From Ensifer sp. LC163 (GTDB taxonomy: Bacteria; Pseudomonadota; Alphaproteobacteria; Rhizobiales; Rhizobiaceae): 64,000 nucleotides of DNA. Shown piece after piece: positions 18,828 through 44,263 of this stretch. Numbering within the stretch: the stretch's first letter is position 1; each line of letters starts with the position of its first letter. A program made the translations under genes and the position numbers. The DNA lies in the NCBI RefSeq assembly GCF_001695855.1, contig NZ_MBSS01000068.1, positions 1 through 64,000 of the forward strand. Direction: 5' to 3'. The notes under the pieces are model-generated. The model was not told where the DNA came from, did not search any database, and saw only the letters and a program-made list of their open reading frames with translations.

Positions 18828-19118
18828 GCGGCTCTGCTCGTCGGTCCTAGCTTATCGCCGCGCTCGGCTGAATTCCTGCGCAGACGGCAACCAGTCCCGG
18901 CCGTTGTCGCGCCGACGCAATCCTCGTCAAGACGCTTCTTCTCGCAAACATCTCACAACGATGCCGAGCGCGTGAACTGTGGGTATGTCGTTCGCAACGA
19001 CAGGCATTCCTGCTTTCGTCCCTCCATGAAAAGCTTTCCTCCAGTTCAGATAGGCAGCCGCCAGTGCACTTACGGAGTTCATCTTCGAATGAGCGGCGAC
19101 GAAGGAGAGGGCGTATCA

Positions 19119-22245: not shown

Positions 22246-22342
22246 GGCCGCGGCCGGATGCCGGCTTTGCAATTTGATTGAACAGAGCGTCGCGCGTTGC
22301 GACCACAGGCCACCGTGCGTCAAATCAAGGGAGGACCACGTA

Positions 22343-23548: not shown

Positions 23549-23562
23549 GGAGGGCCAGGATC

Positions 23563-24519
23563 ATGAAACCGAAAGTCGTTGTAACGCGTCGGTGGCCGAC
23601 GGAGGTCGAAGACCGGCTGAATGCAGAATTCGACGTATCGCTCAACCGCACCGACCAGCCTTTCGACGGACGTGAGTTGCGCGCAGCCCTCGAAGGCGCC
23701 GATGCGGTGCTGCCGACGGTAACCGACAGGATCGGCGCCGACCTGTTCGAGGGAGGCGTTCGCGCAAGGATCCTCGGCAATTTCGGCGTCGGCTTCAATC
23801 ATATCGATGTCGCGGCAGCAAAGGCCGCCGGGCTGGTCGTCACGAATACACCGGGCGTGCTGACGGATGCGACCGCCGATCTGGCGATGACCCTCCTGTT
23901 GATGTGCGCCAGGCGTGCCGGAGAGGGGGAGCGGGAACTGCGGTCCGGCAAGTGGACCGGTTGGCGTCCCACGCATCTTTGCGGAACGCACGTCACCGGC
24001 AAGACCATCGGCATCATCGGTATGGGGCGTATAGGGCAGGCAATGGCACGGCGCTGCCACTTTGGTTTCGGCATGGACGTCGTCTTCTTTGACAGCAATC
24101 CAATTGCGGGTCTCGACGTGCCCGCACGCCAGTTGCCGACCGTCGAGGACGTGCTGGGGACCGCCGATTTCGTATCGCTCCATTGTCCTGGAGGCGGGGA
24201 AAACTACCACCTGATCGACGATCGTCGGCTCGCATGTATGAAATGGTCGGCTTTCCTTATCAACACGGCCAGGGGCGATGTCGTGGACGAGCACGCCCTG
24301 GTCCGCGCGCTGGAGAACCGAAGGATCGCGGGCGCGGGCCTCGACGTCTTCGAAGGCGAGCCGCGTGTGCCTGGTCGTCTGGCCGAGCGGCAGGACGTGG
24401 TTTTGTTGCCACATCTGGGGAGCGCGACGAAGGAGACCCGCATCGCCATGGGGATGCGCATCATTGAGAATCTGAAGGCTTTTTTCAGCGGCCGCGCTCC
24501 GCCGGATGCGGTCAGCTGA
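23563..24519 (+). CDS. D-2-hydroxyacid dehydrogenase, probable hydroxypyruvate/glyoxylate reductase
   Basis: A 318-residue NAD(P)-dependent D-isomer 2-hydroxyacid dehydrogenase. The nucleotide motif is GIIGMGRIGQAMARR. The catalytic Arg lies in NTARGDVVDE, the Glu in the GLDVFEGEP region and the His in LLPHLGSAT. Start 23563 is chosen for AGGAGGG upstream; an in-frame ATG at 23536 would overlap the aminotransferase. It likely reduces hydroxypyruvate to D-glycerate, matching the flanking sgaA and glyA. Confidence 0.9.
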   Translation: MKPKVVVTRRWPTEVEDRLNAEFDVSLNRTDQPFDGRELRAALEGADAVLPTVTDRIGADLFEGGVRARILGNFGVGFNHIDVAAAKAAGLVVTNTPGVLTDATADLAMTLLLMCARRAGEGERELRSGKWTGWRPTHLCGTHVTGKTIGIIGMGRIGQAMARRCHFGFGMDVVFFDSNPIAGLDVPARQLPTVEDVLGTADFVSLHCPGGGENYHLIDDRRLACMKWSAFLINTARGDVVDEHALVRALENRRIAGAGLDVFEGEPRVPGRLAERQDVVLLPHLGSATKETRIAMGMRIIENLKAFFSGRAPPDAVS

Positions 24520-24594: not shown

Positions 24595-25863
24595 ATGTCG
24601 GGTTTATTCGAAAGACAACTCAAGCATGATTCCGTCATTGCCGGCGCGATCGCGCGCGAAATGGGGCGGCAACGCTCCGAGATCGAGCTGATCGCTTCGG
24701 AGAATATCGTGTCGCCGGCCGTGCTTGCTGCGCAAGGCTCCGTCATGACCAACAAGTACGCCGAGGGCTATCCGGGGCACCGCTACTACGGCGGCTGCCA
24801 GTATGTCGATCTCGTCGAAGCCGCTGCGATCGAACGGGCGGGGATGCTGTTTGACGCATCGTTCGTCAATGTGCAGCCGCATTCCGGCGCGCAAGCCAAT
24901 GGCGCGGTCATGCTGGCGCTGTTGAAGCCGGGCGATACATTCATAGGCCTGTCGCTTGCCGCTGGTGGTCATCTAACCCACGGCGCGCGACCGACCATGT
25001 CGGGCAAATGGTTCAACGCCGTCCAATATGGCGTTCGCGAGAGCGATTGCCTGATCGACTATGACGAACTTGAGGACAAGGCCATCGCGACACGGCCGAA
25101 GTTGATCATCGCGGGCGGATCGGCCTATCCACGCCTGATCGACTTCAAACGAATTCGGGCAATCGCCGATGCGGTCGGGGCGGCGATGATGGTCGATATG
25201 GCGCATTTTGCCGGTCTGGTCGCTGGAGGTGTGCATCCGAACCCGGTCGAAATCGCCGATATCGTCACCACGACGACGCACAAGACCCTCCGCGGACCCC
25301 GCGGCGGCATGATCCTCACCAACAATCAGGACGTCGCGAAAAAGGTGAATTCGGCGGTGTTCCCGGGGCTGCAGGGCGGTCCGCTGATGCACGTCATCGC
25401 TGCAAAGGCGGTGGCACTTGGCGAAGCGCTTGAAGACAACTTCAGGCAATACGCGCGCCAGATGGTGGCCAACGCCCGGGCACTAGCTTCGGCGTTGACC
25501 GAACGCGGCTACGATATCGTTTCGGGGGGAACCGATACACATCTGATCCTGGTCGACCTGCGCAGCAAGGGGGTCTCCGGCAAGGATGCGGAGGAGGCCC
25601 TGGGGCGTGCCGGTCTGACCTGCAACAAGAACGGCATTCCATTCGATCCCGCGCCCCCGGCGATAACCTCCGGCATCCGACTGGGAACGCCGGCTGCCAC
25701 CAGCCGGGGCTTCCGCGAAGCGGAGTTCAATGAAGTTGGCACGTTGATCGCCGACGTCCTCGACGCCCTTGGCACCGATCAGGGCACCGAACAGGAGCGA
25801 CGCGCGAGGAAATCGGTCCACGATCTCTGCGCGGCCTTTCCCATCTACTCAGCGGCGCATTGA
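24595..25863 (+). CDS. glyA: Serine hydroxymethyltransferase
   Basis: A 422-residue PLP enzyme of normal SHMT length. It contains [30 protein letters not shown] and the active-site Lys in [15 protein letters not shown]. It interconverts serine/THF with glycine/methylene-THF. AGGAG precedes the ATG. A housekeeping glyA should exist elsewhere in the genome; this copy, last in the C1 operon, is probably dedicated to putting methylene-THF carbon from demethylation into serine. The C-terminal region diverges from typical housekeeping GlyA. Confidence 0.96.
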
Positions 25864-26001: not shown

Positions 26002-26793
26002 ATGCGACTGCCGCCCATAGATCTTAGTCGGGAAAACACATTCGGGGAGATCTCCTACGAAAGTGGAGGGGAATATGGCCCTATTCGGGGGGACTATATT
26101 GCCTTCATCATCGTGCATCTTGGATCGCTCAAGATCGAGGCGGATGAGACCACCGTGGAGTTGGAAGCGGGCCAGTGTGCCCTGTCGCTGACACATGACC
26201 GCTATCTGACAACGATCAATCCCGACGCTCTGACACATATAAGCTGGTGTGATGGACGACCGCAGAATGCTGCTTGGCTTTTCAAGGAGCGCCACAAGTA
26301 TGCGCCCTTCATCACCGCCTCGGCGCAGGTTCAGACGCTGATGCAACTGGGTGTCGATCTCGGCATCGGGGATCGCGATGGTCGCGGCGGCCTTCGCGAG
26401 GCTCTGACGAACACCCTCCTCAACGCCTATATCTATGAGGCGGAAGTCGTCGCCGAGGAAAGGCCGATCCCGCAGACGATTCTTCAGGCCCGTCGCTTTC
26501 TCGATGAAAACTTCGCTGCAGACGTCTCTATTGAGCGCGTTGCACAACAGGTTCGCGTCAGCCCGCAGTATCTTGTGTCTGCCTTCAAGAAACACTTGGG
26601 CATGACGCCGGCGCGGTATCTCTGGCGGTGTCGGCTGGACTATGGCGCGCATCTTCTGCAGCGCAGCGGCTTGTCCGTGAGCGAGATTGCCTACCAGGTC
26701 GGCTACAAAAATCCCTACCACTTTTCCCGTCAGATCAAGCTCGCCTTTGATTGCTCCCCGACAGAGTTGCGTGAGAAAATGCTGAACGGCTGA
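26002..26793 (+). CDS. AraC-family transcriptional regulator
   Basis: A 263-residue AraC protein with an N-terminal cupin-like sensor (about residues 1-100) and a C-terminal double helix-turn-helix. The latter shows ARRFLDENFAADVSIERVAQQV and the second signature SVSEIAYQVGYKNPYHFSRQIK. It stands between the C1-folate operon and the first demethylase subunit gene, in the same direction as both, and is the obvious local regulator of the demethylase island. The upstream gap of about 140 bases and the downstream gap of 175 bases hold no gene. Confidence 0.93.
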   Translation: MRLPPIDLSRENTFGEISYESGGEYGPIRGDYIAFIIVHLGSLKIEADETTVELEAGQCALSLTHDRYLTTINPDALTHISWCDGRPQNAAWLFKERHKYAPFITASAQVQTLMQLGVDLGIGDRDGRGGLREALTNTLLNAYIYEAEVVAEERPIPQTILQARRFLDENFAADVSIERVAQQVRVSPQYLVSAFKKHLGMTPARYLWRCRLDYGAHLLQRSGLSVSEIAYQVGYKNPYHFSRQIKLAFDCSPTELREKMLNG

Positions 26794-26968: not shown

Positions 26969-27865
26969 ATGGAAAACCTCTCTCTCATCGACCCGATTGC
27001 ACGCGACGAATGGCATGTCATTGCCTCGCTCGAGGAGCTCCCATCGAGCGGTATGTTCGCAACCGTTCTTCTCGGCGAAAGGTTGCTGATCGGCCGGCAG
27101 GGCGACCGGCTGGGGGTCTGGCGCGAGCCGCAAGACGGCATAGAGCCGATCGATGCCCAGACGCTCGCCGCCGAGCTTCCGACCATTCAGCGGTTCGGCT
27201 ATCTCTGGACCACCTTGGGCAGCCCAACGCGCGATCTGTTCGAAATACCGGAATTTGACGAGCCGGATCGCAGCCGCATCGTTCAGGGCGTGACCCGGGT
27301 TGGCGTATCGGCGCCGCGCGCGGTCGAGAACTTTCTGGATATGGGCCATTTTCCATTCGTTCACACAGGGATCCTGGGGGAAGAACCCCACACTGAGGTC
27401 AAACCCTACAAGGTCGCTGTCTACTCCGACCCGCCAGAAATCCTGGTCACCGATTGCGAGTTTTACCAACCACAAGCCAATGCCGGATCGGAGACCGGTG
27501 CTGATACCGAGTACGTGTACCGAATACCCCATCCGTTTTGCGCTGTCCTTTACAAAACCGGGTCAACACGCCCGGACAGACGCGACGTGATCGCGCTTTT
27601 CGGGCAACCCGTCGATGAGGACCGGGTGCTCGTGCATATCGTTATCTGTCTGATTGATGAAGTCACGGATCTGGCGGCCATGCGCAGCTTTCACCAGACC
27701 ATCCTTGGGCAAGACAAGCCCATACTGGAAAATCAGGTGCCCAAGCGCTTGCCGCTCGACTCGCGCTCGGAAGTTCCGATCCGTGCAGACGCCGCCTCCG
27801 CAGCTTATCGCCGCTGGCTTCGCGAAAGAGGTCTTCGCTACGGCGTCGTCGCGGGCAGCCGCTGA
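26969..27865 (+). CDS. Rieske-less non-heme iron N-demethylase subunit (NdmC-like), copy 1
   Basis: A 298-residue protein of the ring-hydroxylating oxygenase alpha-subunit family (VanA/NdmA-C branch). The N-terminal 110 residues follow the Rieske fold (WHVIASLEELPS, then FGYLWTTLG) but hold no Cys at all and no CXH/CX2H pairs, so no [2Fe-2S] cluster can form. The catalytic domain is intact: Asn121, bridging Asp124, His127 and His132 in ENFLDMGHFPFVH, with an acidic candidate third ligand in GQDKPILENQ. It would need its electrons from the Rieske centre of another protein, the NdmD-like reductase at 34954. It is probably an oxidative N-demethylase releasing formaldehyde. It sits apart from the other two copies, just before the transporter. 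Confidence 0.85.
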   Translation: MENLSLIDPIARDEWHVIASLEELPSSGMFATVLLGERLLIGRQGDRLGVWREPQDGIEPIDAQTLAAELPTIQRFGYLWTTLGSPTRDLFEIPEFDEPDRSRIVQGVTRVGVSAPRAVENFLDMGHFPFVHTGILGEEPHTEVKPYKVAVYSDPPEILVTDCEFYQPQANAGSETGADTEYVYRIPHPFCAVLYKTGSTRPDRRDVIALFGQPVDEDRVLVHIVICLIDEVTDLAAMRSFHQTILGQDKPILENQVPKRLPLDSRSEVPIRADAASAAYRRWLRERGLRYGVVAGSR

Positions 27866-28124
27866 TGACGGGTGCCAACAACAATCTGGGCAAGCTTAAC
27901 TGGAGATATGCGGGGCCAAAATAGCAGTCATTGTTGCCCAGGCTGTTTCATGAAAGCCTGGTACAGCAATGTGAAAGAACCAACGTCGACGGCGACAAAA
28001 AACCAAAAGGGGAAGCCGTTGGCCCGGACAGTTTCGCATCGATGCCCGCAACCGAGTGCGGAAAGGCGCATCGCCTGCGAGCGACCGAACAAGGTCCAAG
28101 GTTGAAACAGGGAGGAATTTTCAT

Positions 28125-29144
28125 ATGCCTATCAATATCACGCGGCGCACCGCGATCCTGGGTTCGATGGGAGCGTTGCTGGTATCCGCGCTCGATCAGT
28201 CTTTCGCAGCTGAACCCAGTGCACTCAGGATCGCGCTCATTCTCGAAAGCCGGACCGATGTCGGCTGGACCCGCACGTTGCTGGATTCGTTGGAACAGGT
28301 GAAGCAGGCACGCCCCGACGGGCTCGACATATCGTGGGATTACACGGACCCGCTGTGGAACGATGATGCCGAGAACGCCATGCGCTTCTACGCCGAAGGC
28401 GGAGAATACGACATTATCTGGGCCCACGGCCGATACTCTGACCAGGTAAAGAAGCTTAGCGCCGAATTCCCCGACATCATGTTCGTCGTAACCGGGTCGG
28501 GCAACCTGCCGCTCGGAACCAACCAATATTGGCTCTACAAGCGACTTCACGAACCCTCCTACCTGCTCGGCATGCTGGCCGGTCGCACGACCAGATCGGG
28601 CGTCATCGGATTGGTCGGGACGTTTGCCGCAGACGATGTCAACGACCAGATCAATGCGTTCCTCGACGGCGCGAGAGCCGTCAGGCCTGACGTGAAGCAC
28701 CGCGTGTCGTTCATCGGATCGTGGTCCGACAACGCGCTGGCGGCAGAACACGCAAACGTGCAGATCGCCTCAGGTGCGGATGTCGTGTTCATGCTCACGG
28801 ACAACTTCAAGCCCTGTCAGGAGCACAAGATCATGTGCTTTGCCAACATCATCGACCAAAGTAAGCTTGCGCCAGACGCGATCGCCTCCAGTGCGATCAT
28901 CAACTGGCAGCCGGATATCAAATGGATCGTTTCCGAATGGCTCAAGCACAAGCCGCGAGGCCAGTACAACGGAAACACCGAGCCGAAATGGTTCTCCATG
29001 GGGCAGGGCGGCGTCGATATCGCGCCCTATCACGACTTTGATGCAAAGCTACCGGCGACCGTCAAGGAAGAGCTTGCGGCGACGAGACAGAAGATCATGT
29101 CCGGCGAGTTTGTCGTTCCTCTCAACACCGCGGAGGTGAAGTAG
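28125..29144 (+). CDS. BMP-family substrate-binding protein of an ABC importer
   Basis: A 339-residue protein of the basic membrane protein/PnrA-like family, which commonly binds purine nucleosides. Markers include the early ALILESRTDVGWT, the EYDIIWAHG segment, VTGSGN, and SYLLGMLAGRTTRSGVIGLVG. The N-terminus NITRRTAILGSMGALLVSALDQSFAA has a twin-arginine-like pair and an AXA cleavage site and no lipobox Cys, so it is a soluble periplasmic protein, possibly Tat-exported. GGAGGA lies eight bases upstream. It is followed directly by the cognate ATPase and two permeases. Placement among N-demethylase genes points to a methylated purine or similar heterocycle as ligand. Confidence 0.88.
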   Translation: MPINITRRTAILGSMGALLVSALDQSFAAEPSALRIALILESRTDVGWTRTLLDSLEQVKQARPDGLDISWDYTDPLWNDDAENAMRFYAEGGEYDIIWAHGRYSDQVKKLSAEFPDIMFVVTGSGNLPLGTNQYWLYKRLHEPSYLLGMLAGRTTRSGVIGLVGTFAADDVNDQINAFLDGARAVRPDVKHRVSFIGSWSDNALAAEHANVQIASGADVVFMLTDNFKPCQEHKIMCFANIIDQSKLAPDAIASSAIINWQPDIKWIVSEWLKHKPRGQYNGNTEPKWFSMGQGGVDIAPYHDFDAKLPATVKEELAATRQKIMSGEFVVPLNTAEVK

Positions 29145-29176
29145 GACCGACGACAGAACAGGGTTGGTGTCACTCA

Positions 29177-30727
29177 ATGGAAAACCTTCTCAGCGTACAG
29201 AACCTGACCAAGCGGTTTGGAGCCGTTACCGCAAACGACAACGTCGACCTCGACGTTCGCAAGGGCGAAATTCACTGCCTCTTCGGTGAGAATGGTGCGG
29301 GCAAGTCGACGCTGTCGGCCTGCCTGTACGGATACTATCGCGCAGATAGTGGTGTCATTCGTTTCAAGGGTGAGATTGCCGAGCTGAACTCGCCGGCCGA
29401 TGCGCTTCGGCTTGGCATTGGCATGGTGCACCAGCACTTCGTCCTCGTTACCAATTTCACCGTCCTTGAGAACATTATCGTGGGAAGCCCCGAAGTCGGG
29501 ATGTTCCTGTCAAAATCAGCGGCGCGACGAAAGGTCGAGGATCTCTGTCGCCGTTGCGGCATCCAGATCGATCTCGATCGGGAAATCTGGGAGCTCTCGG
29601 TGGGCGAACAGCAATGGGTCGAAATCCTCAAGGCATTGTATTTCGGGGCGGAACTGCTGATCCTCGACGAGCCGACGGCTGTTCTGACCCCACAACAGTC
29701 CGATCAGCTATTCGCAATTCTCGACGGAATGCGTCGCCAGGGCCTGTCCATCATACTGATCAGCCATAAGCTGCGTGAGGTGATGCAGTCCGATCGGGTC
29801 ACGATCCTGCGCAAAGGCAGGGTCGTCGCCACCGTCGAGACATCCGGCACGACGGCAGAAGCCATTACTGCACTCATGGTTGGCCACAAGGTCACCAAGC
29901 ATGTTAGCGACAGGTCTATCGAACCGGGTCGTGATGTCCTTGTCGTCGATCGCGCCTGTGCGCTCGGCGAGTGGGGCGAGGACGTGCTTCGTGATGTCAC
30001 CTTCAGCATCGCCAGCAACGAGATCCTCGGCCTGGCGGGTGTTGCAGGCAACGGCCAGAAGGAGTTGTTCGAAGTCTTGATGGGCGTGAGGACGTTGAGC
30101 TCGGGTGGTTTTCTTCTCGACGGAGATGCTGTCGCTGTGCCGACCTCGCGCGAAATGCTCGACAGGGGCGTTGGGCTCGTGCCTGACGATCGCTTTCGCG
30201 AGGGGTTGATTCCGGAGTTCGGAACGGCCGAGAACCTGGTGCTCGGATGGCAGCGCAAGCCGGAGTATCGGCGCGGACCGTTTCTCGATCGCCGCAAGCT
30301 CAACGCTTTGGCCGAGCGCAAGATCGAGGAGTTCAGGATCGTCGCTGCATCCGCGGACCTGCCCGTCGAGCGCTTGTCCGGCGGCAATGCCCAGCGCGTC
30401 ATTCTTGCGCGCGAATTCCTTCACGCCGGGAGCCTGCTGCTTGCCAATCAGCCGACGCGTGGGCTCGATGTGGCGGCATCCGAATTTGTCTACGAGAAGA
30501 TCCTCGAAAAGCGCGCCGAGGGCTTTGCCATCCTTCTGGCCTCCGAGGAACTCGACGACCTTCTGCGTCTGTGTGACCGCATAGCCGTTATCTTCAAAGG
30601 CAGGATCGTGGGCATTGTGCGGCCCGAGGAAACAACACTCCTCGAGCTTGGAATGATGATGGCGGGTGACGCCAGCAACCTTGATGGACACCTCAATGAT
30701 CTTAGTTCAAAGGCGCTCAGGCAATAG
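29177..30727 (+). CDS. ABC transporter ATPase with two nucleotide-binding domains (nucleoside/sugar type)
   Basis: A 516-residue double ATPase of the YufO/NupA/RbsA type. The first domain is complete: Walker A GENGAGKST, signature LSVGEQQWVEI, Walker B LLILDEPTAVLTP. The second has a degenerate Walker A (GVAGNGQKE), signature LSGGNAQRVILAR and a Walker B region LLLANQPTRGLD. Asn replaces the usual Asp in the Walker B position of the second domain, as is common in this family. It powers the two following permeases. Spacing to the binding-protein gene is 32 bases. Confidence 0.93.
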   Translation: MENLLSVQNLTKRFGAVTANDNVDLDVRKGEIHCLFGENGAGKSTLSACLYGYYRADSGVIRFKGEIAELNSPADALRLGIGMVHQHFVLVTNFTVLENIIVGSPEVGMFLSKSAARRKVEDLCRRCGIQIDLDREIWELSVGEQQWVEILKALYFGAELLILDEPTAVLTPQQSDQLFAILDGMRRQGLSIILISHKLREVMQSDRVTILRKGRVVATVETSGTTAEAITALMVGHKVTKHVSDRSIEPGRDVLVVDRACALGEWGEDVLRDVTFSIASNEILGLAGVAGNGQKELFEVLMGVRTLSSGGFLLDGDAVAVPTSREMLDRGVGLVPDDRFREGLIPEFGTAENLVLGWQRKPEYRRGPFLDRRKLNALAERKIEEFRIVAASADLPVERLSGGNAQRVILAREFLHAGSLLLANQPTRGLDVAASEFVYEKILEKRAEGFAILLASEELDDLLRLCDRIAVIFKGRIVGIVRPEETTLLELGMMMAGDASNLDGHLNDLSSKALRQ

Positions 30728-31775
30728 CATGGGCTGGAACGTTGCCTGCTATTCGGCGGCAATGCTGTGTGCTCTTTTTTCCACCGCCGCCTTACTCCAT
30801 TTGTCCGGAGGTGACGTGGCAAAGGCCTTCTCGTCGCTCGTTATCGGGGCCTTCGGCAGCCAAAAGGCGTTACTCGGTTCGCTTGCCAAGGCGACTCCCC
30901 TGCTGCTTGTGGGCCTTGGAACGGTGATCGCTTTCAGGGCGAAGATCTGGAATATCGGACAGGAAGGGCAGGTTCTGGCCGGCGCCATGTGCGCCTATTG
31001 GGCCAGCCTGTGGATCGGCCCGCTGCCTTATTGGATGGCGTTCGCCGTCCTTGTCCTTGCGGGCCTGGCAGGAGGCGGCGCCTTGGGTCTCTTGGCCGGA
31101 ATTCTCAAGACTCGCTTTGGCACTAGCGAGATCATCTCGACAGTCATGTTGAACTACATCGTGATCTTCCTGCTCGCCTATCTGCTTGATGGTGGACCGT
31201 GGATGGAGTCCGGCGTGACCGTCGCCTATCATCAGTCTCCCCCGGTCAATACAATGTTGGAGTGGCCGACGCTGTTCGGCCAGGGCTCCGCCAAGCTGCA
31301 TGTCGGTTTCTTGCTTGCGCTCGGTGCCACGGCGTTATCGGCCGTCTTGCTGGAGCGAACGCCGCTCGGCTACGAAATCCGCGCTTTCGGCTCCAACCCG
31401 ACTGCGCTTCGGTTCCGCGGAACTGATATCAGCCGCCTCCTGCTGGTCGTGATGCTGGTATCCGGCGCCCTTGCGGGTCTCGCTGGCGCTGGCGAACTTT
31501 TCGGCACGTCCCATCGTCTTCGCGCCGAAACACTGCTCGGTATCGGCAGTTCCGGCATCGTCGTTGCGATGGTCGGAGGGTTGCGGCCAAGCGGCGCCAT
31601 GCTTGCGGCCCTCTTCTTCGGTGCGCTGAAAAGCGGAGCCATTTACATGCGATTGCAGAGTGGAACCCCGGCCGGGCTGGTCTCGGCCATGGAAGGGCTC
31701 GTCCTGCTCTTCTTCCTGTGTGCAGCCGTGGCCACCAGGATCCAGGTTACTGTCAGGAGTGAAGTGCATGCTTGA
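30696..31775 (+). CDS. ABC transporter permease 1 (BMP/nucleoside family)
   Basis: A membrane protein of about 359 residues with eight or more hydrophobic segments. The family motifs AKIWNIGQEGQVLAGAM and GYEIRAFGSNPTALRFRGTDI are those of BPD_transp_2 permeases such as YufP/NupB. The start is uncertain: ATG 30696 gives MILVQRRSGNS before the first membrane helix and overlaps the ATPase gene by 32 bases. ATG 30684, GTG 30666 and ATG 30729 are alternatives without better ribosome sites. It pairs with the next gene product. Confidence 0.9.
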   Translation: MILVQRRSGNSMGWNVACYSAAMLCALFSTAALLHLSGGDVAKAFSSLVIGAFGSQKALLGSLAKATPLLLVGLGTVIAFRAKIWNIGQEGQVLAGAMCAYWASLWIGPLPYWMAFAVLVLAGLAGGGALGLLAGILKTRFGTSEIISTVMLNYIVIFLLAYLLDGGPWMESGVTVAYHQSPPVNTMLEWPTLFGQGSAKLHVGFLLALGATALSAVLLERTPLGYEIRAFGSNPTALRFRGTDISRLLLVVMLVSGALAGLAGAGELFGTSHRLRAETLLGIGSSGIVVAMVGGLRPSGAMLAALFFGALKSGAIYMRLQSGTPAGLVSAMEGLVLLFFLCAAVATRIQVTVRSEVHA

Positions 31776-32700
31776 GCTTTTTCAGGGTCCACTGTTCATC
31801 AGTATTCTGGCCGCAATGGTTCGGATCGCCACGCCGCTGTTGTTCTCTGCCATGGGCGAACTCGTCACCCAGCGTTCCGGTATCTGGAACATTTCCGTCG
31901 AGGGGACGATGTTGCTTGGCGCGGTCGTCGCCTATGTAATCGCGTCAACGACGGGCTCGCCGTGGCTTGCCCTGCTCGTCGCGGTACTGGCTTGCGCGGC
32001 ATTGAGCCTGATCCTCTCGTTCGTCACGATCGTTCTCAAATCAGAGCAATTCATCGCCGGCCTTGCCCTCAACTTGGTTGCCTCGGGTCTCACCCTGTTC
32101 TGGTTCCAGACCTACATCATCGGTCGCGATCCGCCCAAATTCGCGGGTTTTGAAGCTGTCGAGATACCGTATCTGTCGGATATTCCGATCCTTGGAACGG
32201 TGCTGTTTTCCCAGCGCCTTCTGACCTATGTCAGCTTCCTGCTTCCGATCGCGGTCTGGTTTTTTCTCTACCGCACCCGGTATGGGCTCGAAATTCGCTG
32301 CGTCGGGGAAAATCCGAAAGCACTCGACGTCAAAGGGCTGAACGTTGGTCGCCGCCAATGCCTGGCAATCATGTTCGGCAGCCTGATGTCGGGCTTCGGT
32401 GGCGCATTCCTGATGCTCGGCTATTCCGACCGGTTTGTGCCGGACCTTATCGCCGGTCGCGGTTGGCTCGTCGTTGTTGCCATTATCGCCGGCAACTGGA
32501 TGCCTTTCCGTGTGGTTGCAGCGATCTTCATATTCGCATTGCTCGAAGCCATCGGAATTCACGCCCAGGTCGTCGGGGTTTCAATTCCGCATCACGTCTT
32601 CCTGGTGTTGCCATATGTGGCCTCACTCGTGCTTCTGGCTGGCCTGAGGTCGCGAACGCATCAGCCGGTCGCACTTGGAATTCCCTATCGCCGGGAATGA
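31768..32700 (+). CDS. ABC transporter permease 2 (BMP/nucleoside family)
   Basis: A 310-residue permease of the YufQ/NupC type with about eight transmembrane segments and the motif SGIWNISVEGTMLLGA. The second landmark is YGLEIRCVGENPKALDVKGLNV. ATG 31768 follows CAGGAG and overlaps the previous stop by eight bases. Together with permease 1 it forms the asymmetric pore typical of this importer class. A 10-bp inverted repeat about 40 bases downstream probably ends the transporter operon. Confidence 0.93.
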   Translation: MLELFQGPLFISILAAMVRIATPLLFSAMGELVTQRSGIWNISVEGTMLLGAVVAYVIASTTGSPWLALLVAVLACAALSLILSFVTIVLKSEQFIAGLALNLVASGLTLFWFQTYIIGRDPPKFAGFEAVEIPYLSDIPILGTVLFSQRLLTYVSFLLPIAVWFFLYRTRYGLEIRCVGENPKALDVKGLNVGRRQCLAIMFGSLMSGFGGAFLMLGYSDRFVPDLIAGRGWLVVVAIIAGNWMPFRVVAAIFIFALLEAIGIHAQVVGVSIPHHVFLVLPYVASLVLLAGLRSRTHQPVALGIPYRRE

Positions 32701-32740
32701 GGGATAGATGAACTGACGACATCCGACTTTTGCTTCAGCG

Positions 32741-32768
32741 CCCAGCCGTGTGAATTCTCACGGCTGGG
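32741..32768 (+). terminator. Perfect 10-bp inverted repeat after the importer operon
   Basis: CCCAGCCGTG and CACGGCTGGG pair perfectly around an eight-base loop (TGAATTCT), 40 bases after the last permease stop. There is no T-run, so it may be a rho-assisted end or a stabilising hairpin. The remaining 338 bases up to 33106 contain no gene that I can support, only the GGAGG of the next gene. Confidence 0.6.
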
Positions 32769-33106
32769 CTCGGCGCGTCATCCTGCCTAGGCGATGAGGC
32801 GAAAAGTGACCGGCCAAGAAGGTAACAGGGCCAAATTAAGCTATTGATTAAATGCAGCTCTAATCCGACCGCCGGACGGTTCCTTGCGGAGAGCGGCAAA
32901 CATAGGGCAGGAATGACTGCCCTGTTGATGTGTGGGATTTCCGACGGGGACGTTGCCGACCGGTATCTCGAAAAACGTTAATTGAAGGTATGCGCGGGGC
33001 AACGGAAGACATTCCGTCGCGGTCCCGAAAATGAAACTCTGCGGGCAGTTAACAGGCATCGCTACGGTTTTTCCGCAGTGATGCATGACCGCACCGGAGG
33101 TGGCCA

Positions 33107-33970
33107 ATGGGAGAGTTTCGCTGCGCCGATCGTACGCTTCTCAACGACTGGCACGTTGTCGCGGAGCGGGCTGCCCTGCCGTCGAATTCGGCCTTCGCCA
33201 CCAAGCTGATGGGACATGATCTTCAGGTCACACTCGATGGCCGCTACAGCCAGAGAGTGGTCCTGTCGGGGACAGGTGAAGAAGTCTGTTCGGACGCTCG
33301 ATACGGATTCATCTGGGCGTGCCTCGGTAGGCCGGAACGAGACATCATATACCTGCCGGAATCGAACGAGGCCGACCGCCACTTGTTGAGCGGCGGCTCC
33401 ATCGCAGTCAAGGCATCGGGTCTACGAGCCGTCGAGAATTTTCTCGATATGGGGCACTTTCCCTTCGTGCACACCGGCTGGCTGGGCGATGAGCCGCACA
33501 CCGAAGTGCTGCCCTACAATGTGACGATTACCGCGGCAGACGAAGTGCTGGCAACCGATTGCAAGTTCCACCAGCCGCTTGCCTCTCCTACGGCACAGAC
33601 GGCGATGCTGGTCGATTATGTCTACAAGGTCTTCCGGCCCTATACGGTCGCACTCTACAAGAGCAATCCTCTTGATCCCAACCGAAAGGATCTGATCGTG
33701 CTGTTCATCCAGCCGGTCGATGAGGAGAACTGCGTCGTTCACTCCTATCTCTGCTACCTCAAGCAGGGCTTGGAGGCGGCGGCAGTGCGCAGTTTCATGC
33801 AACTGATATTCGCGCAGGACAAACCGATCCTCGAAAACCAGCGCCCACGACGCCTGCCGCTCGATCCGAGGGCGGAAACCCCGATCAGAGCCGATGCCGT
33901 CTCCGTCCACTATCGGCGGTGGCTTCGTGATCGCTCGGTCACCTATGGCGCGATCACGTACCCTGTCTGA
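33107..33970 (+). CDS. Rieske-less non-heme iron N-demethylase subunit (NdmC-like), copy 2
   Basis: A 287-residue paralogue of the proteins at 26969 and 34003. The N-terminal part keeps the Rieske-domain outline (WHVVAERAALPS, then YGFIWACLGRPE). Its few Cys (residue 6 and two near residue 65) are not in CXH/CX2H arrangement, so the cluster is lost. The mononuclear iron motif is complete: Asn111, Asp114, His117, His122. The shared C-terminal block QDKPILENQRPRRLPLDPRAE is also present. GGAGG lies six bases upstream of the ATG. It begins the four-gene run catalytic subunit, catalytic subunit, reductase, GST-like protein. Expected activity is oxidative N-demethylation with electrons from the neighbouring reductase. 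Confidence 0.86.
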   Translation: MGEFRCADRTLLNDWHVVAERAALPSNSAFATKLMGHDLQVTLDGRYSQRVVLSGTGEEVCSDARYGFIWACLGRPERDIIYLPESNEADRHLLSGGSIAVKASGLRAVENFLDMGHFPFVHTGWLGDEPHTEVLPYNVTITAADEVLATDCKFHQPLASPTAQTAMLVDYVYKVFRPYTVALYKSNPLDPNRKDLIVLFIQPVDEENCVVHSYLCYLKQGLEAAAVRSFMQLIFAQDKPILENQRPRRLPLDPRAETPIRADAVSVHYRRWLRDRSVTYGAITYPV

Positions 33971-34002
33971 TCGGCGACGGTCCACCTTGAAGGGAATTTC
34001 TT

Positions 34003-34911
34003 ATGGCGATGACAACTAGATGTTCGGATTCCGTCGTCCTGAACCTATGGCACCCGCTGGGCGCGCTGGCGGAGCTCCCCGTCGATACGGTTGTCGATAC
34101 CGTTCTCCTGGAGGAGCGGCTCAGTCTCGCCGTCGGGCCAGACGGTACGGTTGCCGTTTGGCGGTCTTGCGCCGAGTTTGCCGCCGGCGACAAAATCGAC
34201 GCGGCATCCGTGTGCAATTCGCTGCCGGCAAAGGTCGCCTATGGTTATCTCTGGGCCTCCCTCGGTTGCCCTCCCGACGAGCTCTTCCCCATCCCGGAGT
34301 ATGACGAAACCGATCGGCGCCGCCTGAATGCAGCGACCTTCGGGGTCAATGTGTCAGCGCCGCGCGCGATCGAGAATTTCCTCGACATGGGTCATTTTCC
34401 CTATGTCCACACCGACATCCTGGGCGTTGAACCGCACACCGAGGTCAAGGAATACGATGTCGACATCTCGGTCGAGAGGGACGAAATCCTGGCAACCCGC
34501 TGCCGTTTCTTTCAGCCTTTGGCGTCGAGCGCTTCCCAAACCGGCGCCGAGGTCGAGTACATCTACCGCGTGCCTCACCCCTATTGCTCCGTACTCTATA
34601 AATCGAGCCCGGTCGACGGCGCCCGGTACGATGTCATCGCCGTGTTCATGCAGCCTCTCAGCCAGGAGACTGTCCGTGCGCACATGATGCTTTGCATCCT
34701 CGACGAGGACAATGAAGACAAGGTGATCAAGCGGTTTCAGCAGACGATTTTCGGCCAGGACAAGCCGATTCTGGAAAACCAGTTTCCCAAACGTCTGCCG
34801 CTCGATCCGAGAGCCGAGACCCCGATCCGAGCAGATAAATCCGCCATCGCCTATCGCCGCTGGCTGAACCGGAAGGGTGTCAAATACGGGGTCATTCCGG
34901 CTCCGAATTGA
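34003..34911 (+). CDS. Rieske-less non-heme iron N-demethylase subunit (NdmC-like), copy 3
   Basis: A 302-residue paralogue. Four or so Cys lie in the N-terminal 110 residues, none next to a His in Rieske spacing, so no [2Fe-2S] cluster is expected. Catalytic residues are Asn125, Asp128, His131 and His136 in ENFLDMGHFPYVH, with the C-terminal QDKPILENQFPKRLPLDPRAE block. It is 32 bases downstream of copy 2 and 42 bases upstream of the reductase start. Three paralogues sharing one reductase suggests division of labour between methyl positions or substrates; that is inference. Confidence 0.86.
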   Translation: MAMTTRCSDSVVLNLWHPLGALAELPVDTVVDTVLLEERLSLAVGPDGTVAVWRSCAEFAAGDKIDAASVCNSLPAKVAYGYLWASLGCPPDELFPIPEYDETDRRRLNAATFGVNVSAPRAIENFLDMGHFPYVHTDILGVEPHTEVKEYDVDISVERDEILATRCRFFQPLASSASQTGAEVEYIYRVPHPYCSVLYKSSPVDGARYDVIAVFMQPLSQETVRAHMMLCILDEDNEDKVIKRFQQTIFGQDKPILENQFPKRLPLDPRAETPIRADKSAIAYRRWLNRKGVKYGVIPAPN

Positions 34912-34953
34912 ACCCAGCCAACACGAAACACTGACGACGAATTGGAGACGACG

Positions 34954-36720
34954 ATGCTTGAAGAAGCGAGGACCCGGTGGCATCCGATCGCAGCAACCGA
35001 TGACCTGCCGCTACGCCATGTCTTCCACGGCCAACTGCTTGGCCGGGAGTTTGCTGTGTGGCGCGCAGACGATGGATACGTCAATATCTGGGAAAACCGC
35101 TGTCTGCATCGCGGTGTCAGGCTATCGATTGGCATCAACGACGGCCGAGAGCTGAAATGTCAATATCACGGCTGGCGCTATTCGAACCGCACGGCCGGAT
35201 GCACCTATATTCCGGCCCACCCCGCCGACGCACCTGCCCGGACCATTACCAACCGGTCGTTCCCCGCTGTCGAACGCTACGGTTTGGTGTGGTCGTCCGA
35301 AGGGCCGTACGGCGATCTTCCCGTGTTCGAGGGGCTTAGTGGAGACGACCTGCTCGTGCTGCGCGCCATACCTGTCAATGCATCGGCAGAACTGGTTGTT
35401 AAGACGTTGCGATCCTATCGCTTCCAACCGAATGATGAGATCGATGGGACGGACGCCAGCGTTGAACTGGCGGTAGTGACGGAAGCGGTCGTGGCTCTGA
35501 GGAGCCGCCACGGCATGGCTGAAACGCTTGGTGTCTTTTTCGTTCAGCCGGTGGATTCCGGCCGTTCGATAATCCGAGGCGTTCTTAATGGCAGGCCGGA
35601 TACTGTCCACGCGATGACGGTGTTGCGTCATCACAACGAGGCGCTCTCGGCATTGCGTATACACATTGAGAAGGAAGCCGCCTCACTGCCGATACCTGCG
35701 CCGATCGAACCGATCTTCGAGCGGGTCTCCGAAGAGCTTGCCAGTCTGCCTGAGCTGGACAGCCGTGGACGCAAAGCGGCGATCCGTGTTCAAGTTGCGC
35801 GAAAGTGGCAGACTGCCGATGCCATCATGGCCTTCGAACTCCGACCCATCAAAGGTCTTCTGCCGACGTTCCAGCCCGGTGCTCATATCGATGTACATCT
35901 TCCGAACGGTCTTATCCGTCAATATTCGATTACCAATGGACCTGGTGAAACGGACTGCTTCACCATCGGAGTGAAGCTCGATCCGGCATCGAGGGGTGGA
36001 TCCCAGTGCCTTCACGACAGCGTCCGTGAAGGAGATGTGCTGGCGATCTCCGAGCCAAGGAACAATTTTCCGCTGCGACGCGACGCCCTGAAGACCATCT
36101 TCGTTGCCGGCGGCATTGGCGTGACGCCGTTGCTGGCGATGGCAAAGGCGCTGAACAACCAGAGCCTCGCCTACGAACTGCACTACTTTGCTCAGAACGA
36201 ACAGCAACTCGCATTCGTCGAGAGCAGGCAGGCGCTCGGTGATGCCGTGAAGCCCCATCTCGGGCTATCACCTGACGACACTGCCAGCGAATTGCGCCGA
36301 CTTCTGTCGCCCTATCGCCCGGACACGCAGCTTTATGTTTGTGGCCCCGGACCGATGCTGGAAGTGACGCGCGCCCTGGCGGCCGAGGTTGGTTGGCCCG
36401 AGACTGCGGTGCATTTCGAGTACTTCAAGAACACCAACGTGATCGACGACAGTTCGAGCTTCGAAGTTGCTCTGGCCCGGTCGTGTTTGACCATCAAGGT
36501 GCCGGCCGGGCAGTCCATCCTCGAAGCGATGCGCGAAGCGGGTGTCGATTTGCCGTCATCTTGCGAGCAGGGCGCCTGCGGGACCTGTCTTGCGACCGTC
36601 ATTGAAGGCGAACCGGATCACCAGGACGTCTATCTCAGCCCATCCGAGCGAGAATCCGGCACGAAGATCATGACCTGCGTTTCCCGCAGCAAGTCAGCCC
36701 GTCTCGTCCTCGACGTGTAA
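34954..36720 (+). CDS. Rieske-ferredoxin reductase fusion (NdmD-like), electron donor of the demethylase
   Basis: A 588-residue multidomain oxidoreductase. Residues 9-110 form a true Rieske domain with ligands Cys50, His52, Cys69 and His72 (CXHX16CX2H). Residues about 110-270 resemble a decayed oxygenase catalytic domain without the N-D-H-H iron motif. Then come a VanB-type flavin domain (RQYSITN), an NADH domain (GGIGVTPLL and CGPGPML) and a C-terminal plant-type [2Fe-2S] ferredoxin with CX4CX2C (CEQGACGTC) and a later Cys in MTCVS. This order matches NdmD of the Pseudomonas putida caffeine pathway, whose extra Rieske centre serves the Rieske-less NdmC. ATG 34954 is chosen for GGAG upstream; an in-frame TTG at 34942 is possible. 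It moves electrons from NADH to the three subunits nearby. Confidence 0.9.
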   Translation: MLEEARTRWHPIAATDDLPLRHVFHGQLLGREFAVWRADDGYVNIWENRCLHRGVRLSIGINDGRELKCQYHGWRYSNRTAGCTYIPAHPADAPARTITNRSFPAVERYGLVWSSEGPYGDLPVFEGLSGDDLLVLRAIPVNASAELVVKTLRSYRFQPNDEIDGTDASVELAVVTEAVVALRSRHGMAETLGVFFVQPVDSGRSIIRGVLNGRPDTVHAMTVLRHHNEALSALRIHIEKEAASLPIPAPIEPIFERVSEELASLPELDSRGRKAAIRVQVARKWQTADAIMAFELRPIKGLLPTFQPGAHIDVHLPNGLIRQYSITNGPGETDCFTIGVKLDPASRGGSQCLHDSVREGDVLAISEPRNNFPLRRDALKTIFVAGGIGVTPLLAMAKALNNQSLAYELHYFAQNEQQLAFVESRQALGDAVKPHLGLSPDDTASELRRLLSPYRPDTQLYVCGPGPMLEVTRALAAEVGWPETAVHFEYFKNTNVIDDSSSFEVALARSCLTIKVPAGQSILEAMREAGVDLPSSCEQGACGTCLATVIEGEPDHQDVYLSPSERESGTKIMTCVSRSKSARLVLDV

Positions 36721-36732
36721 GGAAATCAAAAC

Positions 36733-37380
36733 ATGATCAAGCTTTACGATTATGAATTATCGGGCAATTGCTACAAGCTCCGGCTGCTGATGAGCATCCT
36801 GGGGGTCGAATACAGCACCGTTCCCGTCGACTTCTATCCGGGCCGCGAACACAAGGCCGGCTGGTTCCTGAAACTCAATCCGCTCGGTCAACTGCCCGTC
36901 ATCGATGATGACGGTTTGGTGCTGCGCGACGCTCAGGCGATCCTCGTCTACCTCGCCGCCAAATACGACACTGCCGGAACCTGGTACCCGCGCGACAATC
37001 CTGAACTCCTGGGCGAGATCACCCAATGGCTTGCATTTGCGGATGGCATTACGGGCACCGCCTCGGCTGCCCGTCTGCACGATGCCTTGTTCTACGACTT
37101 CGACATCAACGCTGCGCGCGCCGGCGCCCATCGGCTGTTCCGGATCCTCGATGAACATCTTTGGTTCGGTGAGCGGCAAGGGCGCGAATGGATCTGTTCC
37201 ACAAGCCAACCAACGATCGCCGACATCGCGTGCTTCCCCTACATCATGCTTTCGGAGGAGGGGGGCATTTCCAGGCAGGACTATCCGGCGATCCGTCGCT
37301 GGTGCGACCGGGTCAAGCGGCTCAAGGGGTTCATTGTCATGTCGGGCGTGTTTCCCGCCGGCCCCGCTAAGGCGGCATAG
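36733..37380 (+). CDS. Glutathione S-transferase-like protein (NdmE-like)
   Basis: A 215-residue GST-fold protein. The N-terminal thioredoxin-like domain starts IKLYDYELSGNCYKLRLLMSILG, with NPLGQLPVIDDDGLVLRDAQAILVYLA at the glutathione site and a helical C-domain containing PTIADIACFPY. It starts 12 bases after the reductase gene. In the P. putida NdmCDE complex a GST-like protein is needed for assembly rather than catalysis. The same gene order here suggests a scaffold between the Rieske-less subunits and the reductase. A true glutathione transferase activity, for example in formaldehyde handling, cannot be excluded. Confidence 0.88.
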   Translation: MIKLYDYELSGNCYKLRLLMSILGVEYSTVPVDFYPGREHKAGWFLKLNPLGQLPVIDDDGLVLRDAQAILVYLAAKYDTAGTWYPRDNPELLGEITQWLAFADGITGTASAARLHDALFYDFDINAARAGAHRLFRILDEHLWFGERQGREWICSTSQPTIADIACFPYIMLSEEGGISRQDYPAIRRWCDRVKRLKGFIVMSGVFPAGPAKAA

Positions 37381-37445: not shown

Positions 37446-38573
<1,128 letters not shown>

Positions 38574-38746: not shown

Positions 38747-39583
38747 GTGAAGATCGTTTCTACCGCGAGATCCCATGGAGGTGTCCAGGGCGTGTATTCA
38801 CATGCCTCAACCACCTGTGCCTGCGAAATGACCTTCGCCGTATTTGTTCCCCCGCAGGCCGAGCATTCGCCGCGGCCGGTTCTCTGGTATCTATCGGGGC
38901 TGACATGCACCCCGGCAAATGTCGTCGAGAAGGGGGAGTACCGGCGGCTCGCAGCCAAATTCGGGCTGATCATAGTCTGCCCGGACACCAGCCCGCGCGG
39001 AGAGGGTGTCCCGGATGAGCCGGACAATTGGCAGTTTGGTTGTGGTGCTGGCTTTTACCTCGACGCAACACAACCCCCTTTCGCCAAGCACTATCGGATG
39101 TACAGCTACTTGACGGACGAGCTTCCGGCAGTTGTCGGCGCAAATTTTAACGCCGATATGGAGCGTCAAGGGATATTTGGTCACTCGATGGGCGGCCACG
39201 GGGCGCTGGTCATGGCGTTGCGGCAGCCCGACCGGTTCAGGAGCTGCTCAGCCCTTGCGCCGATCGTTCGCCCTACCGAAGCCGAGTGGTCAAAACCAGC
39301 ACTGCGGAAATACCTAGGAGCCGACGAGGCAACTTGGCGCGGTTACGATGCCGTTTCTCTTATCGAGGATGGCCATCGGTTCAAGGAGTTACTGGTCGAT
39401 CAGGGAAAGAATGACCCATTCCTGACGGACGGACTTCGGCCCTGGTGCCTCGAGGAGGTCTGCAGAAAAGCGAACATGGCGCTCACAATGCGCCATCAAG
39501 CTGGGTATGATCACTCCTATTATTTCATCTCGACATTCATGGAGGATCATCTGCGGTGGCACGCGGAGCGGCTTACCGGATAG
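38747..39583 (+). CDS. fghA: S-formylglutathione hydrolase
   Basis: A 278-residue esterase-D family enzyme. The catalytic Ser is in GHSMGGHGALV, the Asp lies in the KNDPFL segment and the His in GYDHSYYFI. LSGLTCTPANV near the N-terminus is also typical. It hydrolyses S-formylglutathione to formate and glutathione, completing the pathway begun by frmA. The start is GTG 38747 with AGAAGGA upstream. The 173 bases separating it from frmA hold no gene. Confidence 0.96.
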   Translation: MKIVSTARSHGGVQGVYSHASTTCACEMTFAVFVPPQAEHSPRPVLWYLSGLTCTPANVVEKGEYRRLAAKFGLIIVCPDTSPRGEGVPDEPDNWQFGCGAGFYLDATQPPFAKHYRMYSYLTDELPAVVGANFNADMERQGIFGHSMGGHGALVMALRQPDRFRSCSALAPIVRPTEAEWSKPALRKYLGADEATWRGYDAVSLIEDGHRFKELLVDQGKNDPFLTDGLRPWCLEEVCRKANMALTMRHQAGYDHSYYFISTFMEDHLRWHAERLTG

Positions 39584-41042: not shown

Positions 41043-41083
41043 CGGTGCCTCCAAGTCCAAGATAGCTGGTTTGAAACTAATCT

Positions 41084-43117: not shown

Positions 43118-43190
43118 GGAGATTTCTCCGGTTCCCGATTTATTGTTCAGGACGGTCCGCTGGGGCGGACCGTTCATAATGCAGTCGGTT

Positions 43191-44252: not shown

Positions 44253-44263
44253 CGGCCCTGACC

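What the first reader, a model, noticed from the sequence alone, without database searches (positions are those of the whole stretch)
26969..37380. N-demethylase island in which every oxygenase subunit lacks a Rieske cluster and one reductase carries the only one
Three oxygenase paralogues keep the mononuclear-iron motif but none has the CXH/CX2H ligands. Beside them is a reductase with a genuine Rieske domain plus flavin, NADH and plant-type ferredoxin domains, then a GST-like protein. Established knowledge: in the P. putida CBB5 caffeine pathway only NdmC is Rieske-less and uses the extra Rieske domain of NdmD, with GST-like NdmE as assembly partner, while NdmA and NdmB have their own clusters. 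Here the NdmC/D/E arrangement is the whole system, in an apparent alphaproteobacterium, with three catalytic subunits and no NdmA/NdmB type. I infer a shared-reductase, multi-specificity N-demethylase with an unknown, probably N-methyl heterocyclic, substrate.
Basis: partly seen in the sequence, partly recalled or inferred. Interest (0 to 1): 0.92.

Follow-up and report, generated by a model that had tools for sequence, protein, structure and literature searches.

The report
Split Rieske N-demethylase, probably for methylpurines
A soil bacterium of the Sinorhizobium kind carries three related enzymes that probably strip methyl groups from methylated purines; each lacks its own electron-relay cluster and seems to borrow it from one shared helper protein.

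Summary
Confirmed: three oxygenases with an iron site but no Rieske ligands, one reductase with the island's only Rieske domain, and a GST-like protein. They are NdmC/NdmD/NdmE homologues: 42-46%, 38% and 67% identical to a set beside a caffeine-type ndmA. In a 51-row tree all 33 Rieske-less rows, NdmC included, form one clade. Such homologues in Sinorhizobium and Mesorhizobium are already in print, function unknown. New here: (1) the paralogues carry three conserved residue pairs (HL, MF, QF) at the two positions changed in the NdmA double-mutant crystal entries. (2) Some relatives sit beside purine genes: a same-type island in Rhizobium setariae adjoins xanthine dehydrogenase and urate-pathway genes; others adjoin guanine deaminase or a xanthine permease. 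N-methylated purines are the likeliest substrates. (3) The reductase segment between Rieske and flavin domains resembles a decayed oxygenase catalytic domain, suggesting one oxygenase split by reciprocal loss. Against: only 5 of 80 loci show guanine deaminase or xanthine dehydrogenase, and nothing was assayed or modelled. New variant of a known kind.

The parts
18972..20375 (+). GcvT/DMSP-demethylase-like aminomethyltransferase (C1 handling; linked to the island in S. meliloti)
   Evidence: PF01571 3.7e-57; 87% homologue in the same order in L086. Role inferred.
21385..22245 (+). PurU, formyltetrahydrofolate deformylase
   Evidence: TIGR00655 320 bits, cut-off 286
22340..23548 (+). BhcA-like aspartate-glyoxylate aminotransferase
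   Evidence: NF045640 601 bits, under its cut-off of 650
23536..24519 (+). glyoxylate/hydroxypyruvate reductase-like dehydrogenase
   Evidence: best NCBIfam model 294 bits, under its cut-off of 455
24595..25863 (+). GlyA, serine hydroxymethyltransferase
   Evidence: NF000586 619 bits, cut-off 335
26002..26793 (+). AraC-family regulator
   Evidence: PF12833 3.5e-21
26969..27865 (+). Rieske-less oxygenase A (signature HL)
28056..29144 (+). BMP/PnrA-type solute-binding protein
   Evidence: PF02608 7.2e-25
29177..30727 (+). ABC transporter ATPase, two ABC domains
   Evidence: PF00005 1.5e-42, two stretches
30666..31775 (+). ABC permease 1
   Evidence: PF02653 9.7e-39
31660..32700 (+). ABC permease 2 (start probably near 31768)
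   Evidence: PF02653 1.3e-33
33107..33970 (+). Rieske-less oxygenase B (signature MF)
34003..34911 (+). Rieske-less oxygenase C (signature QF, as in NdmC)
34942..36720 (+). NdmD-like reductase: Rieske (about residues 9-118), decayed oxygenase-like segment (about 119-286, inferred), flavin/NADH region (about 280-495), plant-type ferredoxin (about 516-582)
36733..37380 (+). NdmE-like GST homologue, 67% identical to NdmE
37446..38573 (+). S-(hydroxymethyl)glutathione dehydrogenase (FrmA)
   Evidence: TIGR02818 580 bits, cut-off 544
38747..39583 (+). S-formylglutathione hydrolase (FrmB); not found in the pSymA island
   Evidence: TIGR02821 438 bits, cut-off 282

Best explanation
An NdmCDE-type split Rieske N-demethylase system with three catalytic subunits sharing one reductase and one GST-like assembly partner. 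Electrons are inferred to run NADH -> flavin -> plant-type [2Fe-2S] -> Rieske cluster of the reductase -> mononuclear iron of oxygenase A, B or C, which hydroxylates an N-methyl group; the product falls apart to formaldehyde and the demethylated ring. FrmA/FrmB oxidise the formaldehyde. The BMP-type transporter imports the substrate. The most likely substrates are N-methylated purines (methylguanine or methylxanthine types) whose demethylated rings enter xanthine/urate catabolism; glyoxylate from that pathway could be taken up by the BhcA-like aminotransferase, glyoxylate reductase and GlyA encoded upstream. The three subunits differ at the specificity positions, so they probably act on different ring positions or different methylpurines. 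C carries NdmC's pair, a hint of N7 action, but that pair is widespread in the clade and in Rieske-bearing relatives and may simply be ancestral. Historically, one Rieske oxygenase lineage divided into two complementary proteins: one kept the iron and lost the cluster, the other kept the cluster and apparently lost the iron site. Shown: gene content, missing and kept ligands, family membership, signature conservation, neighbourhoods. Inferred: electron path, complex, substrates, division of labour, reciprocal loss.
For: Identity to NdmC 43.6, 41.6 and 45.9% (A, B, C) against 23-27% to NdmA/NdmB; reductase to NdmD 38% over 606 columns; GST to NdmE 67%. The reference set is the cluster on P. putida pTmex-577K, whose NdmA is 92% identical to PDB NdmA over 208 residues. 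Tree: 33 of 33 Rieske-less rows in one clade, one change of state. Signatures over L086 and the 80 loci: rows nearest C QF 81 of 81; nearest B MF 44 of 45, the odd one (L022) having a broken frame; A orthologues HL 6 of 6, window included. D253 of oxygenase C is invariant in 56 chosen rows, as are D128, H131 and H136, but the last three were part of the search pattern that chose the rows. Formaldehyde genes adjoin. Purine neighbours over curated cut-offs: L015 ureidoglycolate lyase, PuuE-OHCU decarboxylase, hydroxyisourate hydrolase, XdhA, XdhB; guanine deaminase in L024, L046, L050 and L053; 8-oxoguanine deaminase in L106; xanthine permease in L053 and L088. Reductase segment 119-286 against oxygenase catalytic domains: hhalign 39.0, 0 of 40 column permutations as high (maximum 18.0); a profile search of 11,730 ORFs lists oxygenases directly after reductases and two reductase fragments.
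Against: Guanine deaminase, xanthine dehydrogenase or xanthine permease was found in only 5 of the 80 loci (L015, L024, L046, L050, L053); two more (L017, L036) have an adenosine-deaminase-like gene and L058 a low-identity XDH-like one. Of the 3 window-type islands with sequence past frmA (window, L015, L086) only L015 has the urate genes beside it. The window's own downstream flank is rich in betaine/choline-type genes. QF also occurs in 10 of 11 R. leguminosarum-type rows and in Rieske-bearing rows, 3 of 3 nearest C and 4 of 8 nearest NdmA, so it is not diagnostic of N7. The decayed-domain match covers 27-41 columns with hhalign probability 78-79%, and is not significant against NdmA/NdmB-type profiles (2 of 40 and 4 of 40 permutations as high); the best single-sequence E-value is 0.0013.
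Confidence: 0.7

Rival explanations
1. Same split-demethylase machinery, but the substrate is a quaternary or tertiary amine (betaine, stachydrine, methylated amino acid) rather than a purine.
For: The window carries GbdR-like regulators, a choline/betaine-type ABC transporter with an OpuAC binding protein and a GbcA-like oxygenase about 0.4-10 kb downstream of frmB, and GcvT-, PurU- and GlyA-type C1 genes upstream.
Against: The oxygenases belong with NdmC and match no NCBIfam model, GbcA included, at 1e-3. The downstream betaine-type genes are not linked to the island elsewhere: four of them searched against S. meliloti pSymA L086 (about 11 kb past frmA held) and the 80 loci gave only a 38% GbdR-like match in L074 and L084. 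Some relatives adjoin purine enzymes.
Confidence: 0.15
2. A caffeine/methylxanthine pathway proper, for plant purine alkaloids.
For: Closest characterised family is the caffeine N7-demethylase; FrmA/FrmB and an NdmE-like GST are shared.
Against: No NdmA/NdmB found; neither xanthine-permease query matched the window at 1e-15; BMP transporter and AraC regulator instead. Several relatives adjoin guanine deaminase, which a methylxanthine route does not need.
Confidence: 0.12
3. Only one or two of the three oxygenases are active; the others are structural or decaying copies.
For: Relatives with only C (34 of 80 have the C pattern and a reductase) or B and C with reductase and GST (40 of 80) evidently persist.
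Against: The iron motif is intact in all three and signatures are conserved within each group.
Confidence: 0.15

Closest known systems
NdmCDE, N7-demethylase of Pseudomonas putida CBB5 (Summers 2013; known here only through passages of PMC4408171 and PMC8055839)
   Same: Rieske-less oxygenase, reductase with an extra Rieske domain, GST-like partner, formaldehyde genes beside it; 42-46, 38 and 67% identity to a homologous P. putida cluster.
   Different: Three oxygenases instead of one, no NdmA/NdmB, BMP ABC transporter and AraC regulator where the P. putida cluster has an NCS2 permease and GntR; linked to C1/glyoxylate genes.
ndmCDE homologues of Sinorhizobium/Mesorhizobium noted as function unknown (PMC4408171, passages)
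   Same: Probably the same genes: S. meliloti 1021 pSymA carries the island, except frmB, at 82-96% identity per gene.
   Different: The passages seen mention homologous clusters only, not the three-oxygenase form, signatures, purine linkage or decayed domain. Summers 2013 itself was not seen.
NdmA/NdmB
   Same: VanA_C catalytic fold, N-demethylation, NdmD-type reductase.
   Different: They keep their own Rieske cluster and lie outside the Rieske-less clade.
SxtT / GxtA (the latter listed in the PDB as SxtDIOX)
   Same: Best PDB sequence matches to all three oxygenases (E 8e-24 to 1.1e-30).
   Different: Own Rieske cluster; hydroxylases of saxitoxin-type alkaloids, not demethylases (recalled).

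Membership tests
NdmCDE | oxygenase lacks Rieske C-x-H/C-x2-H ligands | tested here: met
   3 of 3 window oxygenases
NdmCDE | mononuclear-iron ligands and bridging Asp present | tested here: met
   DMGHFP(F/Y)VH in 3 of 3; D253 invariant in 56 chosen rows incl. the three and NdmC; roles of the residues recalled from the RO family
NdmCDE | reductase with N-terminal Rieske plus flavin, NADH and plant-type ferredoxin domains | tested here: met
NdmCDE | GST-like protein encoded beside it, NdmE-related | tested here: met
   67% identity to NdmE
NdmCDE | oxygenase groups with NdmC, apart from NdmA/NdmB | tested here: met
   SH-aLRT 98 clade (quick method, no bootstrap; long-branch warnings elsewhere in the tree)
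NdmCDE | physical C-D-E complex | not testable with these tools
   structure prediction switched off
NdmCDE | N7-demethylation of 7-methylxanthine | not testable with these tools
   the shared QF pair of oxygenase C is only a weak hint
NdmA/NdmB | own Rieske cluster in the oxygenase | tested here: not met
NdmA/NdmB | position in the NdmA/NdmB clade | tested here: not met
glycine-betaine monooxygenase (GbcAB) | GbcA model match | tested here: not met
   No NCBIfam model matched any of the three oxygenases at 1e-3

The most novel reading that the evidence does not exclude
NdmC-type enzymes are the iron-keeping half, and the NdmD N-terminus the cluster-keeping half, of one ancestral Rieske oxygenase that split by reciprocal loss. 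The halves were then wired to the flavin reductase in at least three ways (Rieske fused to it, Rieske free, oxygenase fused to it). The original job of the family is salvage of methylated nucleobases from RNA or nucleotide turnover, with caffeine demethylation a late specialisation; the three-subunit island is a multi-position methylpurine scavenger.
Probability: 0.35. Interest if true: 0.8.

Novelty: new variant of a known kind. Interest (0 to 1): 0.62.

Why it matters
It gives a testable substrate class for ndmCDE homologues described in print as of unknown function, and a tractable host: nearly the same island is on S. meliloti 1021 pSymA. If the reciprocal-loss reading holds, it is a natural experiment on inter-subunit electron transfer in Rieske oxygenases, with cluster and iron site encoded on separate, re-wirable proteins. 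It would also help explain how bacteria dispose of methylated nucleobases.

Tried and rejected
Rejected: that the missing Rieske ligands are a start-codon or frame artefact (gap is interior). Rejected: many independent losses of the cluster (one change on the tree). Tried without yield: literature by locus tags SMa2103-SMa2113 (three papers, one mention each, not opened; the tags were my guess); papers on the NdmA double mutant (none); a phrase search for Rieske-lacking demethylases (none); split-Rieske wording (none). GST glutathione-site decay as evidence for a structural role: inconclusive; the usual Ser is Ala in 59 of the 86 rows whose site could be read, out of 96. Clustering of neighbours by longest ORF was spoiled by antisense ORFs and redone with a codon-position filter. 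Devosia neighbours (SDR dehydrogenase, Ldh_2 and others) gave no substrate clue. The XDH-like protein near the S. meliloti RCAM1750 cluster is far below every xanthine dehydrogenase cut-off.

Weak spots. In one search one query (guanine deaminase of L053) was translated out of frame and found nothing; one search repeated it in frame. One search read signatures by regular expression and misread three rows (L054, L060, L075); one search recounted B and C by alignment. Rows dropped: the tree has 14 window/reference rows plus 37 of the 194 hits, after removing near-copies, short catalytic segments and reductases caught by the search; it carries long-branch warnings for rows outside the main clades and for KnO2 and L091. 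The tree has 52 rows, similarly thinned; of 31 rows labelled reductase or free Rieske, 29 form the clade, while L050 and L089 fall among full oxygenases and look mislabelled (a full oxygenase and a fragment). The 56 rows are a selection from 62 non-redundant of 156, L022 and L091 among those left out. In one search the first two 'non-reductase' hits (L034, L057) are reductase fragments. In one search only the four best candidates per genome were scored. No control count of purine genes beside random loci was made; 20 of the 80 loci are shorter than 17 kb.
Full report
WHAT IS THERE. On the + strand lie oxygenase A (26969-27865), a BMP-type ABC transporter (28056-32700), oxygenase B (33107-33970), oxygenase C (34003-34911), a 592-residue reductase (34942-36720) and a GST-like protein (36733-37380). 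The three oxygenases match VanA_C and have the DMGHFP(F/Y)VH iron motif but no C-x-H/C-x2-H pair; among these proteins only the reductase has such a pair. Formaldehyde genes frmA and frmB follow, both over curated cut-offs; PurU and GlyA (over cut-offs), a BhcA-like aminotransferase and a glyoxylate-reductase-like enzyme (both under) precede.

FAMILY. The PDB search returned no NdmC; nearest solved relatives are SxtT/SxtDIOX, then NdmA and NdmB. I therefore fetched a complete ndm cluster from a P. putida plasmid, recognised by a protein 92% identical to NdmA over 208 residues; the labels NdmB to NdmE in it are mine, from the gene set described in PMC4408171 and domain content. The window oxygenases are 43.6, 41.6 and 45.9% identical to its NdmC over nearly the full length and 23-27% to NdmA/NdmB; the reductase is 38% identical to NdmD over 606 columns; the GST is 67% identical to NdmE. 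A maximum-likelihood tree of 51 catalytic domains (quick method) puts all 33 Rieske-less rows, NdmC and A, B, C included, on one branch (SH-aLRT 98), needing one change of state; the neighbouring group of six rows (L109, L111-L115) is Rieske-bearing, and NdmA/NdmB lie apart. The placement of A beside the C group is weaker (87).

DISTRIBUTION. Of 80 relatives fetched from genome contigs (370 found, the best 80 kept), 4 have A+B+C, 40 B+C and 33 only C together with reductase and GST. Two others (L056, L081) show neither reductase nor GST and stop at a contig end; Pseudonocardia L051 has a reductase and no recognisable GST. The window island, except frmB, is on S. meliloti 1021 pSymA at 82-96% identity per gene (L086). 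In a sample of 398 Pseudomonadota genomes 24 match oxygenase C at E 1e-20 or better, the window's own and Rieske-bearing relatives included. In 297 genomes of the family 24, the window's own among them, have the reductase at E 1e-150; the four other same-genus genomes listed do not, though only four candidates per genome were scored. The system looks patchy and accessory.

SPECIFICITY. Two residues distinguish the NdmA crystal entries 6icp/6icq from wild type in the aligned part (N to Q and F to L; alignments). PMC8055839 (passages) states that two active-site mutations can turn NdmA from N1- to N3-demethylation, citing Kim 2019, which I did not see; that these are the same two residues is my inference. 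In one search NdmA has N,F; NdmB Q,L; NdmC Q,F. Over L086 and the 80 loci, rows nearest C have Q,F in 81 of 81 and rows nearest B M,F in 44 of 45, the exception (L022) having a broken frame. A orthologues (80-100% identity, window included) have H,L in 6 of 6. Three subunits thus carry three conserved signatures. That supports a division of labour but does not show it. Q,F itself is not diagnostic: it is also found in 10 of 11 R. leguminosarum-type rows and in Rieske-bearing rows (3 of 3 nearest C, 4 of 8 nearest NdmA), so the match of C to NdmC may be ancestral.

SUBSTRATE. Neighbours of some relatives point to purines. In Rhizobium setariae (L015), an island of the window's type is followed, about 180 bases after frmA, by ureidoglycolate lyase, a PuuE-OHCU decarboxylase fusion, hydroxyisourate hydrolase and XdhA, all over curated cut-offs, and XdhB over cut-off (matched to L015 by its coordinates and): much of the route from xanthine to glyoxylate. 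Guanine deaminase over a curated cut-off lies in L024, L046, L050 and L053. Nocardioides L053 also has a xanthine permease/OHCU decarboxylase and XdhB over cut-off, and XdhA slightly under its own. L106 has an 8-oxoguanine deaminase over cut-off on one side and a guanine-deaminase-like protein just under cut-off on the other. R. leguminosarum-type cluster L090 carries an 8-oxoguanine-deaminase-like amidohydrolase under cut-off. Klebsiella plasmid L088 has a xanthine permease. All seven Rieske-bearing relatives L109-L115 have an adenosine-deaminase-like gene and a BMP binding protein in the roughly 3.7 kb held; the one deaminase scanned (L112) is over cut-off. In fairness, among the 80 loci only L015, L024, L046, L050 and L053 gave guanine deaminase, xanthine dehydrogenase or xanthine permease; L017 and L036 gave an adenosine-deaminase-like gene and L058 a low-identity XDH-like one; the others gave none with these queries. 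The window's downstream flank holds betaine/choline-type genes, but four of them have no counterpart in L086 or the 80 loci beyond a 38% GbdR-like match in L074 and L084, so they do not travel with the island. The window genome has two xanthine dehydrogenase large subunits over cut-off, on other contigs. Guanine deaminase would fit methylguanine as well as methylxanthine substrates. That the glyoxylate-handling genes upstream serve purine breakdown is inference.

MECHANISM. In Rieske oxygenases the cluster of one subunit serves the iron of its neighbour (PMC12445004, passages). [quoted passage not shown] The NdmCDE complex was still unsolved according to a paper of May 2026 (PMC13237722, passages). 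In oxygenase C, D128, H131, H136 and D253 are invariant in the 56 rows; the first three belong to the pattern by which rows were chosen, D253 does not. D128 matches the aspartate that in this enzyme class links cluster and iron (recalled), so the electron entry point seems kept while the cluster has gone. Profile alignment of reductase against oxygenases pairs the stretch before the reductase's Rieske ligands and the stretch after them with the oxygenases' N-terminal part and leaves a gap where the ligand loops were.

RECIPROCAL LOSS. Reductase residues 119-286, between Rieske and flavin domains, match no Pfam family. Their profile aligns with the oxygenases' catalytic domain around FFVQPVD..RSVIRG / FVQPVDEE.C.AH with hhalign scores 39.0 and 38.4 (two alignments; probability about 79%); 0 of 40 column permutations reached either (maxima 18.0 and 16.6), and reversed controls scored 9.1 and 9.5. 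A search of 11,730 stop-to-stop ORFs with this profile lists, after reductases and two reductase fragments, oxygenases mostly of B type (best E 0.0013). Against Rieske-bearing NdmA/NdmB-type profiles the match is not significant (2 and 4 of 40). Of 31 rows labelled reductase or free Rieske in a tree of Rieske domains, 29 form one clade (SH-aLRT 97, short alignment); the two outside look mislabelled. Three wirings occur: Rieske plus reductase (window, NdmD); free Rieske with a separate reductase (L126) or none seen in the stretch (L090, L092); and oxygenase fused to reductase with a free Rieske (Variovorax L091). I read this as one oxygenase that divided into an iron half and a cluster half. 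Without a structure it remains a hypothesis.

VERDICT. A real, well-delimited system: a three-oxygenase variant of NdmCDE, probably for methylated purines. Homologues in these genera were already noted in print as of unknown function. In the listings and the passages seen I met no statement of the purine linkage, the three signatures or the decayed domain; that library is open-access only, and Summers 2013 and Kim 2019 were not seen. On checking, the N7 hint for oxygenase C was weakened because the QF pair is widespread; the overall odds did not hang on it and are unchanged.

Noticed in passing
L126:17167-22657: Komagataeibacter kombucha plasmid has two Rieske-less oxygenase sets (each with a Rieske-like protein and a GST) around one reductase; the second Rieske-like protein has lost its second cysteine (GVYHGW).
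   Followed up: partly
L091:11196-13689: Variovorax plasmid: a Rieske-less oxygenase fused to the flavin/ferredoxin reductase, with a separate Rieske protein.
   Followed up: partly
L051:10001-12700: Pseudonocardia dioxanivorans has oxygenase C and reductase but no recognisable GST, unlike Nocardioides L053, which has one.
   Followed up: partly
L017:13475-20888; L035:15266-20888: A neighbouring operon type: AraC, full Rieske oxygenase, VanB-like reductase and BMP protein, with adenosine deaminase (L017) or a GcvT-like protein (L035); its BMP protein is 54-56% identical to the window's.
   Followed up: partly
20495-21388: 297-residue protein with no Pfam (1e-5) or NCBIfam (1e-20) match, conserved at 82% in the S. 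meliloti island between gcvT-like and purU.
   Followed up: no
40020-55499: Two GbdR-like regulators, choline/betaine-type ABC transporter, a GbcA-like Rieske oxygenase (48087-49286), aldehyde dehydrogenase and ferredoxin reductase: a second oxygenase system, probably for a betaine-like compound.
   Followed up: partly
L050:12135-14250: Metagenome genome with oxygenases B and C, reductase, GST, frmA and guanine deaminase beside an NdmB-like full Rieske oxygenase (38% to NdmB).
   Followed up: partly
L022, L057, L089: Apparently broken or interrupted oxygenase or reductase reading frames in three relatives; left as they are.
   Followed up: no
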